In this document: positions 19,364 through 22,055 of the stretch, one piece after another
How positions within the stretch are numbered: position 1 is the stretch's first letter
How the letters are laid out: every line of letters begins with the position of its first letter
DNA from: Streptomyces erythrochromogenes
Lineage (GTDB): Bacteria > Actinomycetota > Actinomycetes > Streptomycetales > Streptomycetaceae
Length of the DNA stretch: 64,000 nucleotides
Direction: 5' to 3'
Assembly (NCBI RefSeq): GCF_036170895.1
Contig: NZ_CP108036.1
Span: forward strand, 7,847,501-7,911,500
Notes under the pieces: generated by a model
What the model was told of the DNA's origin: nothing
What the model saw: only the letters and a program-made list of their open reading frames with translations
Database searches by the model: none
Translations under genes and position numbers: made by a program

Positions 19364-19825
19364 ATGCGTCGGGTATTCGGGTCACGGGTCTCGCGTCGTG
19401 TGGCCGCGCTGACGGTGGCGGCTGCGTGGCTAGGCGCGGCTCAGACCGTGCCGGCATCAGCAACTGCGGAGGCGTACCAGACCGCGATCACGCACAGTCA
19501 GTCCGGGAAGTGCCTGGACGGCAGCCTCTCCCAGGGTGTTCGCCTGGTCACTTGCGACAGTGGGGCCTACCAACAGTGGATCGTGAGTGTTTCGTCGGCC
19601 GCCACGATCAAGCATGTCCAGTCTGGGAAGTGCCTGGATGGAAGTGCCTCCCAAGGCATCCGCCTCGTCACCTGTGACGGTGGGGCGTACCAGCAGTGGA
19701 CCACGAACCTCTCCGGGTACGTGGTCAAGCATGTCCAGTCCGGGAGGTGCCTGGACGGCAGCGTCTCCCAGGGCGTCCGCCTCATCACCTGCAGCGGCGC
19801 GAACTACCAGGCCTGGTACCTCTAA
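19364..19825 (+). CDS. Small secreted ricin-type beta-trefoil lectin
   Basis: A 153-residue exported protein. A signal peptide covers about residues 1-34 (RRVAALTVAAAWLGAAQ, cleavage after ASA). The mature part is exactly three repeats of about 39 residues, each with SGKCLDG or SGRCLDG, SQGxRLxTC and a QQW or QAW ending. These are the QxW repeats of a RICIN beta-trefoil. The repeats are nearly identical at DNA level (about 117-bp units), which suggests recent triplication or gene conversion. A GGAGGGAG ribosome-binding site precedes ATG 19364. No catalytic domain is attached, so it is probably a free carbohydrate-binding protein. It sits between two transposase remnants. Confidence 0.82.
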   Translation: MRRVFGSRVSRRVAALTVAAAWLGAAQTVPASATAEAYQTAITHSQSGKCLDGSLSQGVRLVTCDSGAYQQWIVSVSSAATIKHVQSGKCLDGSASQGIRLVTCDGGAYQQWTTNLSGYVVKHVQSGRCLDGSVSQGVRLITCSGANYQAWYL

Positions 19826-20050: not shown

Positions 20051-20459
20051 CGGTCCGCCAGTTGACGAAGGACACCTTCTCGCTCAGCTCTGTGCTGGTC
20101 TCCCTCTGCCGAAACGCCGTGTCGCTCAGGAGACCGTGCAAGAACGCCGCCGTGCCGAGAGGGTGCAACTGGCATCTCGGGGTCGGTGTGCCGTCCGCAG
20201 ATCAGGACCGGCCATCGATCCGGGTCGACTCGGGGTCCACGTCGAGCCCGGGCCGGCCCAGTACGGGTATCCCTCGGCCCGCAGCAGGATGCTGATCCCA
20301 CTGCTGATCAGCCCCCGCCCCGTACCACTTGGGCCCTTACCTGTACGTGGGGTCCGAGTTGTGTGCGGGCGGGGCACCGCTAATGCAGACCAAGATGCGC
20401 GCAACTGGCGCTGGACCTAGCATGAAGGAGAGTGACTGTCTAGTCAGGAAGGCAGCATC
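20051..20459. other. Decayed IS region and leader of the peptide locus
   Basis: No intact gene is seen. The first part probably holds degraded transposase sequence. From about 20350 GC content drops towards the peptide locus. Just before the first ORF, TGACT-gtct-AGTCA at 20433-20446 is a small perfect inverted repeat, followed at once by the ribosome-binding site AGGAAGG. The inverted repeat could be an operator for the locus. Confidence 0.35.
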
Positions 20460-20636
20460 ATGACGGACGCACAAGAGAATTCGGGAAGATACCTGCTCAT
20501 TTTGCCGGTAGAACAGGACGAAGCTCTGAAGGCGGCGCTTGGGAGTGAATACGACAAGCTCCTGAGAAAGGGCACGGCATGCGCGAGCACAAACGTTGCA
20601 GGGGGCGACGTTCACTGTGGCGACGCTGAGCAGTGA
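20460..20636 (+). CDS. Candidate RiPP precursor peptide (58 residues)
   Basis: A 58-residue ORF with ATG 20460 behind AGGAAGG at 8-nt spacing. The N-terminal part is charged and helix-prone (YLLILPVEQDEALKAALG at residues 11-28). The C-terminal 21 residues after LLRK are rich in small and nucleophilic residues: Thr39, Cys41, Ser43, Thr44, Asp50, Cys53, Asp55 and Glu57. This is leader-plus-core organisation. Its TGA shares bases with the GTG start of the next ORF (GTGA). The third gene of the run is an MvdD/TgmB-like ATP-grasp ligase, which forms ester or amide crosslinks on precursor peptides. No homologue is known to me. It could instead be a small accessory protein. Confidence 0.62.
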   Translation: MTDAQENSGRYLLILPVEQDEALKAALGSEYDKLLRKGTACASTNVAGGDVHCGDAEQ

Positions 20637-20836
20637 AGGTGCCGCTCTCACCGAAGTCAACCCCTCATGACGACCGGCCACTTCCGTTCGTCATGAGGGT
20701 TGCGGCAGAATGGCAGAATTTTGAGGAGGGCGATTCCGTCCTCCTCTTCCAGGGTCGCGCCCCCTTGACCGGAGACCTCTCTGTTACGGCGGACGGGTCT
20801 GACGTGCAGTTTTCTGACATTGGGTTGGAAGTTTGA
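20633..20836 (+). CDS. Candidate graspetide precursor or accessory peptide (67 residues)
   Basis: A 67-residue ORF starting at GTG 20633, overlapping the upstream stop by 4 bp. Its own stop overlaps the only usable start of the ligase (TTGA at 20833-20836). These overlaps argue that it is translated. Residues 16-25 contain LPFVMRVAAEW, which resembles the PFFxRFL recognition helix in leaders of microviridin-type precursors. The region after it carries Thr, Ser, Asp and Glu in the pattern needed for side-chain crosslinks (TGDLSVTADGSD, then FSDIGLEV). I consider it the more graspetide-like of the two small ORFs. A 12-bp stem-loop lies within its 5' part. Assignment as precursor is inference. 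Confidence 0.6.
   Translation: MKVPLSPKSTPHDDRPLPFVMRVAAEWQNFEEGDSVLLFQGRAPLTGDLSVTADGSDVQFSDIGLEV
20662..20699. repeat. 12-bp-stem inverted repeat inside the second small ORF
   Basis: CCCTCATGACGA (20662-20673) and TCGTCATGAGGG (20688-20699) are perfect inverse complements around a 14-nt loop. The hairpin is placed between the first small ORF and the ligase gene. That position is where RiPP operons often have a partial terminator or RNA-processing site, giving more precursor than enzyme. There is no T-tract after it, so simple intrinsic termination is not certain. Confidence 0.6.
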
Positions 20837-21804
20837 TTCTCATCATTTCCGAACCCGATTGTGATGGCCACATCGCGCCAGTCACGGCCGAGTTGTCACG
20901 CCGGGGCGAAGATTTCAGGATCTATGATCCGGCGATGTATCCCGCGTCGTCGACGATTACGATCGAGAGTGCAGCCGCAGGCACGAAAACGTCTCTTAGC
21001 TGGGACGGGAACGTTCTGGATCTGTCTTGCGTCAAGAGCGTATGGTACCGACGGCCAGGGAAGCTTGCGTTGTCGGACCAGTTGACAGCGGAAGAGGGAA
21101 AGTGGATTCGATCGGAGTGCAACCATCTACTTCGTGCGGCGTGGGCGGGCATGCGCTCGCGCTGGGTCAGCCGCCCCGAGGCGATCAGATCCGCGAGCGT
21201 CAAAGTCTCGCAACTCAAGGTGGCCGCTGATATCGGCTTCACCATTCCTCGCTACACGGTGACGAATGACGTCGACTCCGCTACGGAATTCATCTCCTCG
21301 TGCCGCGAAGGGGTCGTCGTCAAGGTTCTGACAGACCCGTTCATCGCCTACTCTGATCGATGGTGCAGGCTCTACACTCACTTGCTCTCAGCCGACGACC
21401 TCGACAAGGTGGAGTCCATTCGCTTCGGGCCAACGTTCCTGCAGGAGTTCATACAGAAGACGATGGACGTGCGCGTCACCGTGTTTGGTGAGGAAGTTTT
21501 TGCCGTTGGGATCAAGTCAGCCGAGTCCGAAGAAGCGCGTGTAGATTTCCGTCGCGCCGAGGTCTACGACCTCCCACACTCCATCGTGACTTTGCCTGAG
21601 CATCTGAACTCGTTCTGCACGGAGCTGGTCAGGCGCCTGGGACTTCGTTTTGGGGCGATTGATTTCGTCCTTACACCGGACGGCCAGTACTTCTTCCTGG
21701 AGATTAACCCAAACGGTCAGTGGTACTGGCTGGAGTTGGTTACGGGAGTTCCCTTGACAAGGTCTCTGTGTAGCCAGCTTGCTTGTGGGTCAGATGTGAA
21801 CTGA
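20833..21804 (+). CDS. MvdD/TgmB-like ATP-grasp peptide ligase
   Basis: A 323-residue ATP-grasp enzyme of the group that matures microviridins and related graspetides by forming ester or amide links between side chains. The N-terminal domain begins ILIISEPDCDGHIAPV and has the characteristic VWYRRP near residue 71. The linker SVKVSQLKVAADIGFTIPRYTVTND (about 122-146) is typical of MvdC/MvdD. The ATP-binding region includes GVVVKVL, FLQEFIQKTMDVRVTVFG, and the Mg-binding end GAIDFVLTPDGQYFFLEINPNGQW. The TTG start overlaps the preceding stop (TTGA); an in-frame stop lies 18 bp upstream, so no longer start is possible. No transporter or protease gene is adjacent. GC content is below that of neighbours, suggesting transfer. 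Confidence 0.85.
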   Translation: MILIISEPDCDGHIAPVTAELSRRGEDFRIYDPAMYPASSTITIESAAAGTKTSLSWDGNVLDLSCVKSVWYRRPGKLALSDQLTAEEGKWIRSECNHLLRAAWAGMRSRWVSRPEAIRSASVKVSQLKVAADIGFTIPRYTVTNDVDSATEFISSCREGVVVKVLTDPFIAYSDRWCRLYTHLLSADDLDKVESIRFGPTFLQEFIQKTMDVRVTVFGEEVFAVGIKSAESEEARVDFRRAEVYDLPHSIVTLPEHLNSFCTELVRRLGLRFGAIDFVLTPDGQYFFLEINPNGQWYWLELVTGVPLTRSLCSQLACGSDVN

Positions 21805-21830
21805 GGGGTGTCGATTAGCGGCGGGTGCGA

Positions 21831-22055
21831 TCATTCCTCTGATGTGGAAGTATCAACGTCGCCCAAATGGAGTTCGAGGCTGCCGCTCAAACGGCAGATC
21901 GATACCCGTGTCCCCTGTACTGACGGGCGTTGACCTCCCGCCAGCGAGTTCAAATGTTCCCCCACGTGGGGCGGTATCGGAATGACGTGAGTTCCGACAG
22001 GAATTGGCGTGCATGAGTGCTTTCCTGTTGCAGGATCTCTCGACTCATCAGTCAT
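21831..22055 (-). CDS. Hypothetical 74-residue protein convergent with the ligase
   Basis: A 74-residue ORF read towards the ATP-grasp gene and ending 27 bp from its stop. ATG 22055 is preceded by AGGAA at 7-nt spacing. The sequence has no recognisable domain. It contains THVIPIPPHVGEHLNSLAGG in the middle, two Cys (about 15 and 54) and an acidic/hydroxyl C-terminus, LHLGDVDTSTSEE. Composition is similar to the neighbouring peptide locus rather than to the chromosome. It may be a further small protein of the island or a non-coding frame. I include it for its start signal and position. Confidence 0.4.
   Translation of the reverse strand: MTDESRDPATGKHSCTPIPVGTHVIPIPPHVGEHLNSLAGGQRPSVQGTRVSICRLSGSLELHLGDVDTSTSEE

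What the first reader, a model, noticed from the sequence alone, without database searches (positions are those of the whole stretch)
20460..21804. Compact graspetide-like RiPP locus: two small ORFs coupled to an MvdD/TgmB-type ligase
Three ORFs of 58, 67 and 323 residues overlap by 4 bp each (GTGA and TTGA). The third is an ATP-grasp ligase of the family that crosslinks precursor peptides. The second ORF carries LPFVMRVAAEW, reminiscent of the PFFxRFL leader helix, and an acidic/hydroxyl tail. The first has a leader/core look, with two Cys plus Thr, Ser, Asp and Glu in its last 20 residues. The first ORF is too short for most gene callers. There is no recognisable transporter or intact methyltransferase nearby. 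GC content is low, and IS remnants lie upstream. Having two candidate precursors, one of them Cys-containing, would be unusual for graspetides.
Basis: partly seen in the sequence, partly recalled or inferred. Interest (0 to 1): 0.88.

Follow-up and report, generated by a model that had tools for sequence, protein, structure and literature searches.

The report
Graspetide-like locus with split leader peptide
A Streptomyces-like genome carries a compact set of four genes in which a peptide-crosslinking type of enzyme travels with two tiny peptides and a small accessory protein; related sets occur in distant bacteria but match no named peptide family, and they may be a natural case in which the enzyme's "on switch" and one of its substrates are separate peptides.

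Summary
Three ORFs (A 58 aa, B 67 aa, ligase 323 aa) overlap by 4 bp each, and the ligase is an MvdC/MvdD/TgmB-type ATP-grasp protein. Comparison adds three things. (1) The ligase lies in a separate clade (members 43-72% identical to it; Streptomyces, Pseudonocardia, Chloroflexota). B goes with it: present in 4 of 4 clade loci with DNA, always overlapping the ligase gene by 4 bp, with 35 database homologues. The same domain is fused to the ligase C-terminus in 23 of 120 listed homologues. (3) B has a microviridin-like leader motif (PFxxR in 36 of 39) and a C-terminal hairpin with invariant Thr, Thr, Asp, Ser/Thr, Asp. A lacks that motif and varies; one locus has four in tandem. A, B and D had no significant match to the Pfam or NCBIfam models scanned.

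Best reading: a graspetide-type RiPP module. B's helix activates the ligase, B's hairpin is probably cross-linked, and A is a second, leaderless substrate served in trans. Graspetide-type module: about 0.85. This division of roles: about 0.38. A's similarity across loci is weak, and no chemistry was tested.

The parts
20460..20636 (+). Gene A (ORF1, 58 aa): candidate substrate peptide; LLILP stretch, then a tail rich in Thr/Ser/Cys/Asp; lacks the Phhx(1,2)h leader motif
   Evidence: ORF, with AGGAAGG at 20446-20452; A-like ORFs upstream of B in L031, L032, L033; pairwise similarity weak
20633..20836 (+). Gene B (ORF2, 67 aa): conserved leader-bearing small protein, overlaps the ligase gene by 4 bp
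   Evidence: 35 homologues; in 4 of 4 clade loci and in none of the other loci held; one copy in the own genome
20675..20713 (+). B leader motif RPLPFVMRVAAEW (residues 15-27); model helix at 19-28
   Evidence: P18, F19, W27 invariant in 38 sequences; PFxxR in 36 of 39; helix in a low-confidence model
20768..20818 (+). B C-terminal hairpin T46-D62 (TGDLSVTADGSDVQFSD), candidate cross-linked core
   Evidence: T46, G47, T52, D57, D62 invariant and residue 61 Ser or Thr in 39 of 39; strands 48-51 and 58-61 in the model
20833..21804 (+). ATP-grasp ligase, 323 aa, MvdC/MvdD/TgmB type
   Evidence: DFR motif at residues 238-240
21831..22055 (-). Gene D (74 aa), convergent with the ligase; homologous to the C-terminal extension of the ligase in other clade members
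   Evidence: leave-one-out profile E 1.4e-13

Best explanation
A graspetide-type RiPP module. Shown: a recurring set of ligase, small protein B (gene overlapping the ligase gene) and domain D (beside or fused to the ligase), with an A-like ORF upstream. Inferred: the helix of B (RPLPFVxRVAAEW) docks on the ligase as the microviridin leader does and switches it on. The ligase phosphorylates Asp side chains and joins them to Thr hydroxyls in the B hairpin, most simply as nested T52-D57 (inner) and T46-D62 (outer) esters. The same B helix then serves in trans for A, which lacks the motif. D is a small hairpin domain that binds the ligase and helps it fold or hold its substrate.
For: Ligase family and fold, with the DFR motif kept. 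B tied to the ligase: 4-bp overlap in 4 of 4 loci; 11 of 35 B homologues share source and longest-contig length with a listed clade ligase, two of these pairs with neighbouring locus tags (compared by eye). Reactive-type residues of the B tail invariant (5 of 9 against 1 of 13 other positions, Fisher p 0.023, range chosen by me). A lacks PFxxR in 18 of 18 sequences (15 of them one family), B has it in 36 of 39, background 1.7%. Four tandem A genes in L033, with T70, T76, D84, D85, D90, D92 invariant in 15 A sequences of that type. TGx4T in 15 of 15 of those and 38 of 39 B, against 1.7% of the last 45 residues of 12,084 ORFs (motif noticed first, then counted). Best ribosome-site energy of A starts -6.5 to -11.8 in 7 ORFs, 5 of 7 beyond the local 5% random level; B weak in 3 of 4 loci. 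D fused to the ligase in 23 of 120 listed homologues. A microviridin leader fragment acting in trans on AMdnC is reported in PMC5934393 (passages seen).
Against: No chemistry was tested. Window A: 1137, 1841, 245 and 32 of 2000 shuffles reach its score against the four L033 A ORFs, 3 and 21 of 2000 against L031 and L032; L031 against L032 62 of 2000. Window A lacks TGx4T (by eye), and its ribosome site (-6.5) and that of L032 A (-7.5) are within the local 5% random level (-8.8, -7.7). The 15 L033-type A sequences are close relatives and have many other invariant positions too. Profile comparison of that A family with B is not significant (P 0.09). The B model has low confidence (pLDDT 57.8). 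Phhx(1,2)h alone occurs in 34% of background ORFs, so its absence from A means little. I saw no transporter or protease gene beside the window locus. In L033 an internal B start has a good ribosome site (-10.8).
Confidence: 0.38

Rival explanations
1. Pure split leader: B is only a dedicated partner that activates or delivers, never cross-linked, and A (sometimes multicopy) is the sole substrate.
For: One B match in each of the four genomes searched, its gene overlapping the ligase gene, conserved to its end, identity to the window copy 42-50% against 46-59% for the ligases of the same three loci. A variable, and tandem in L033. Precedents: partner-dependent graspetide synthetases (PMC13097080) and the LPL small proteins suggested as possible ATP-grasp partners (PMC8939145).
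Against: Does not explain why Thr/Asp/Ser-Thr positions of the B tail are invariant in 39 sequences; B alone is not predicted with confidence to fold.
Confidence: 0.23
2. Canonical single-precursor graspetide: B is the only precursor (leader plus hairpin core); A is an unrelated small gene, for example a regulator or immunity peptide.
For: B alone has the full leader-core layout; A similarity across genera is weak.
Against: An A-like ORF with a Thr/Ser/Asp-rich tail lies upstream of B in 4 of 4 loci, in four tandem copies in one; coding-like GC by codon position in L032 A (0.66/0.43/0.84).
Confidence: 0.22
3. Other ATP-grasp chemistry: the ligase joins an amino acid or other group to A or B rather than making side-chain cross-links.
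For: NCBIfam cut-offs for MvdC, MvdD and TIGR04187 are not reached; the clade sits on a long stem (0.41); RimK-type ligases with other substrates are among the more distant matches.
Against: Best structural matches of a clade member are peptide macrocyclases, 7mgv and 5ig9; DFR motif and leader motif kept.
Confidence: 0.1

Closest known systems
Microviridin system (MdnA/MdnB/MdnC)
   Same: Ligase relatives 5ig8 and 5ig9; leader motif PFFARFL (as printed in PMC8939145) matches PFVxRV at P, F and R; a microviridin leader fragment works in trans (PMC5934393)
   Different: One ligase here, two small ORFs, a D domain, different core spacing; acetyltransferase and transporter of microviridin loci (named in PMC5934393) not seen beside the window locus
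TIGR04187 / TgmB actinobacterial graspetide ligases
   Same: Best NCBIfam match (240 bits)
   Different: Below cut-off 350; only a generic methyltransferase-domain fragment nearby; no NCBIfam precursor model matched
Partner-protein-dependent graspetides (rosaritide MirA/B/C; PMC13097080, parts 1-4 of 6 read)
   Same: Idea that a co-encoded protein is needed by the synthetase
   Different: MirC is a PpiC/SurA-like protein of over 300 residues (TIGR04500); B and D of the window are 67 and 74 aa and matched no family
LPL family of Bacteroidetes graspetide loci (PMC8939145, sections 5-7 read)
   Same: Small conserved non-precursor-like protein whose motif was said to resemble the leader motif, in loci whose precursors lack it
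   Different: LPL proteins lie upstream of SPASM enzymes, none of which I saw here; no sequence comparison made
Double-glycine-leader precursors of related non-clade ligases
   Same: Ligases 32-39% identical with small ORFs upstream
   Different: 16 of 32 non-clade loci examined show a double-glycine-type leader by eye; none of the non-clade loci gave a B or D hit

Membership tests
Graspetides (omega-ester/amide RiPPs) | MvdC/MvdD-type ATP-grasp ligase | tested here: met
   PF21068 40.8 vs cut-off 27; 5ig8 E 3.5e-42; Foldseek of a clade member, P0061: 7mgv and 5ig9 best
Graspetides (omega-ester/amide RiPPs) | Synthetase DFR motif and ATP-grasp residues kept | tested here: met
   D238 and R240 invariant, F239 in at least 90%, FLExNPNG invariant in 36 sequences; the DFR motif is named in PMC13097080
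Graspetides (omega-ester/amide RiPPs) | Adjacent precursor with leader helix motif and conserved donor/acceptor residues | tested here: met
   Met by B as sequence features; the leader motif is not met by A
Graspetides (omega-ester/amide RiPPs) | Loss of 18 Da per link | not testable with these tools
   Needs expression and mass spectrometry
NCBIfam TIGR04187 / TIGR04184 / TIGR04185 | Score above curated cut-off | tested here: not met
   240/350, 193/475, 188/425 bits
Known graspetide precursor families | Match to a curated precursor model | tested here: not met
   38 B members: only single-member weak hits, best E 0.06 in Pfam and 0.034 in NCBIfam. Window A: none in NCBIfam, best Pfam E 0.16. 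Five other A and three D proteins in NCBIfam: best E 0.18. Window D in Pfam: none. The other A and D proteins were not scanned in Pfam
Partner-dependent graspetides of MirC type | TIGR04500 PpiC-like partner gene | not tested
   Flanking ORFs were not scanned with this model

The most novel reading that the evidence does not exclude
A natural split-leader graspetide system. The activating leader of the ligase is carried by a separate peptide, B, made about 1:1 with the enzyme by translational coupling, and serves in trans for one or more leaderless precursors A, while D acts as a third, sometimes fused, subunit. The catalyst would be a small complex rather than one enzyme plus a leader-core peptide. 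(The probability is for the whole conjunction.)
Probability: 0.38. Interest if true: 0.8.

Novelty: new variant of a known kind. Interest (0 to 1): 0.62.

Why it matters
If B supplies the activating helix in trans, the ligase could be pointed at leaderless peptides without fusing a leader, something described as a laboratory strategy (PMC13003496, passages seen). It would also add three unnamed small protein families, extend partner-dependent graspetide biosynthesis to a clade found in at least two phyla, and give a set of under 2 kb that can be tested in E. coli.

Tried and rejected
A-D and A-B homology by profile comparison: hhalign P 0.05 (local) and 0.81 (global) for A-D, 0.09 for A-B, 0.47 for D-B; not significant. 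I therefore do not claim that A, B and D are related, although hhalign placed DDTSAYMFRG...TGxxxxT of A beside DDGxLFFRxR...TGxLxxT of B.

Decayed pseudogene cluster: rejected, because the frames are open and B, D and the ligase are conserved across phyla.

Plasmid or viral carriage: the best plasmid match is 36% identical and the best viral-contig match 36%.

More orthologues: 392 genomes of the own genus at E 1e-60 gave only the own genome. A second draw gave 0 of 392, but the handles it lists are those apart from its centre, so it is not an independent sample. The genus of L032 gave 1 of 62, the class of L033 1 of 158, its phylum 1 of 301; those single hits are L032 and L033 again. In the class-wide draw of 394 the own genome scored 537 bits and the next 293. 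In one search, 118 of 199 relatives had a ligase match, none above 37% identity in the rows listed apart from the own genome. In the GTDB scan (best 80 of 361 kept) only L031, L032 and L033 exceeded 40%.

PDB search with the B profile: no match up to E 10.

Rows dropped: P0122 (the window itself) and P0157 (E 8e-4, only the N-terminal motif aligns) were left out of all B sets. P0123, the same protein as the L032 B, is among the 35 homologues and the 39 rows and not in the 38-row A5. One search lists 120 of 617 proteins; counts are on those 120. P0137/P0084 share a contig length but not a source and were not counted among the 11.

Odds: on checking, the ribosome sites of window A and L032 A were found to be within the random range and window A to lack TGx4T, so the best explanation went from 0.42 to 0.38; rivals were moved slightly (0.25 to 0.23, 0.20 to 0.22).

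Literature: four searches, of which I saw listings of 30, 20, 15 and 12 papers, and parts of six papers: PMC13097080 (parts 1-4 of 6), PMC8939145 (sections 5-7), and passages of PMC13003496, PMC5934393, PMC10452190 and PMC10787088. In what I saw, B, D or this clade is not described. Supplementary files could not be read, so the 19 newer groups of PMC13097080 and the cluster tables of PMC8939145 may contain it.

Full report
What is there. The window lies at 7.85-7.91 Mb of an 8.6 Mb genome (G000; the host is called Streptomyces-like from the names of the closest ligases, an inference). Their GC is 57-58% against 71.6% for the window, and an HTH_29 fragment and a methyltransferase-domain fragment flank them, which fits acquisition by transfer. 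The genome has one match to the ligase family TIGR04187, below its cut-off, and one B.

The ligase. It matches PF21068 above cut-off, and TIGR04187, MvdD and MvdC well but below their cut-offs. The best solved relatives by sequence are MdnB, MdnC, AMdnB and CdnC. A protein search gave 617 homologues, 120 listed. In a midpoint-rooted tree of 115 ligases the window falls in a clade of 51 (local support 0.984, stem 0.41); the smaller group of 47 that spans the four loci with B has support of only 0.482, and for the four members outside it (P0082, P0088, P0090, P0092) B is not known. Clade members are 43-72% identical to the window ligase and include Streptomyces, Pseudonocardia and Chloroflexota entries. 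D238, R240 and the FLExNPNG stretch are invariant in 36 sequences.

Gene B. In the three other clade loci with DNA (Streptomyces sp. MMG1121 L031, Pseudonocardia dioxanivorans CB1190 L032, a Thermomicrobiaceae MAG L033) a B homologue precedes the ligase and overlaps it by 4 bp, as in the window. The profile search found 37 proteins; without the window's own and one weak partial match, 35 remain. B and D profiles hit nothing else among 25,472 ORFs of 141 loci plus the window (the 11 hits each are the four clade loci and re-fetched copies of them). Across 38 B sequences P18, F19, W27, T46, G47, T52, D57 and D62 are invariant, and position 61 is Ser or Thr in 39 of 39. In residues 44-65, 5 of 9 hydroxyl/carboxyl positions are invariant by class against 1 of 13 others (Fisher p 0.023; the range was chosen after seeing the alignment). 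The AlphaFold2 model has low confidence (pLDDT 57.8) but shows one helix over the motif (19-28) and two strands (48-51, 58-61), so that T52-D57 would sit at the turn and T46/D62 at the open end (the last step is my inference). The motif PFxxR is in 36 of 39 B and 1.7% of background ORFs; the looser Phhx(1,2)h is in 38 of 39 but also in 34% of background, so only the strict form carries weight.

Gene A. Upstream of B in all four loci lies an ORF with a hydrophobic-Pro stretch and a tail with Thr/Ser/Asp, and Cys in most. In L033 there are four in tandem, with close relatives on other contigs. Best ribosome-site energies of the seven A ORFs are -6.5 to -11.8; five of the seven are beyond the local 5% random level, but those of the window and L032 are not. 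B starts are weak in three of four loci; in L033 an internal start is strong. In 15 L033-type sequences T70, G71, T76, D84, D85, D90 and D92 are invariant, as are several other positions, since these are close relatives. TGx4T is shared by 15 of 15 of these and 38 of 39 B, but window A lacks it. The relation of window A to the others is weak: 3 and 21 of 2000 shuffles reach the score against L031 and L032, and 1137, 1841, 245 and 32 of 2000 against the four L033 genes. The two groups may be analogous rather than homologous. Codon-position GC of L032 A (0.66/0.43/0.84) resembles that of its ligase (0.70/0.47/0.92), which supports A being a real gene there.

Gene D. The minus-strand ORF 21831-22055 is homologous to a C-terminal extension of the ligase in 23 of the 120 listed homologues and in L033. 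It is convergent in the window and L032, co-directional in L031, and fused in L033. A fused member (P0061) models with block-mean pLDDT of 90-99 over the ligase and 63-79 over most of the D region, falling below 50 at the very end, with one hairpin (373-379, 382-388). Fusion argues for physical association with the ligase.

Mechanism. Microviridin ligases are switched on by a leader helix, and a leader fragment works in trans (PMC5934393, passages). Leader motifs of this kind occur in about half of the graspetide precursors surveyed in PMC8939145. B has the motif; A lacks PFxxR in 18 of 18 and has the loose form in 1 of 18. B is tied to the ligase gene by the same 4-bp overlap in all four loci, whereas A can be multicopy and varies. 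The simplest model that uses all of this is that B activates the ligase, is itself probably cross-linked at its invariant Thr/Asp positions, and lends its helix to A. The evidence does not separate this cleanly from B as pure partner or B as sole precursor; those are listed as rivals.

Comparison with what is known. It works like a graspetide system and meets the sequence features I could test (ligase type, catalytic motif, leader-bearing small ORF with conserved donor and acceptor residues), but the product is untested and no curated precursor model matched. Partner-dependent synthetases were reported in 2026 (PMC13097080, parts 1-4 of 6 read), with partners of other families. PMC8939145 (sections 5-7 read) suggested a small LPL protein as a possible partner in Bacteroidetes loci. 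Of 32 related non-clade loci (ligases 32-39% identical) 16 have a double-glycine-type precursor by eye. I therefore rate this a new variant of a known kind.

Noticed in passing
L033 3789-5218: Four tandem A-type ORFs of 95-99 aa before B in a Thermomicrobiaceae MAG; an MFS-type transporter and a B3/4-domain gene lie downstream on the other strand.
   Followed up: partly
L031 3886-5355 and 8283-8355: The MMG1121 copy sits between a phage-integrase-family gene and a tRNA-Arg gene, which suggests an integrative element.
   Followed up: partly
L042 5538-5951 and L043 4191-4604: Nitrospirae ORF of 137 aa before a related ligase with repeated TKTxxxRESDD-like units, perhaps a multicore precursor.
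   Followed up: no
window 19364-19825: Small ricin-type lectin-domain ORF between a TetR-type regulator gene and the locus.
   Followed up: no
L002 2572-2724 (minus strand): Upstream of a 36% identical ligase, a 50 aa ORF with LRLVNGG and a tail TPDGTVDAKDLDF that resembles the tail of B by eye.
   Followed up: no
window 21805-21830: D and the ligase are convergent with 26 bp between their stop codons; L032 is also convergent, L031 co-directional.
   Followed up: partly
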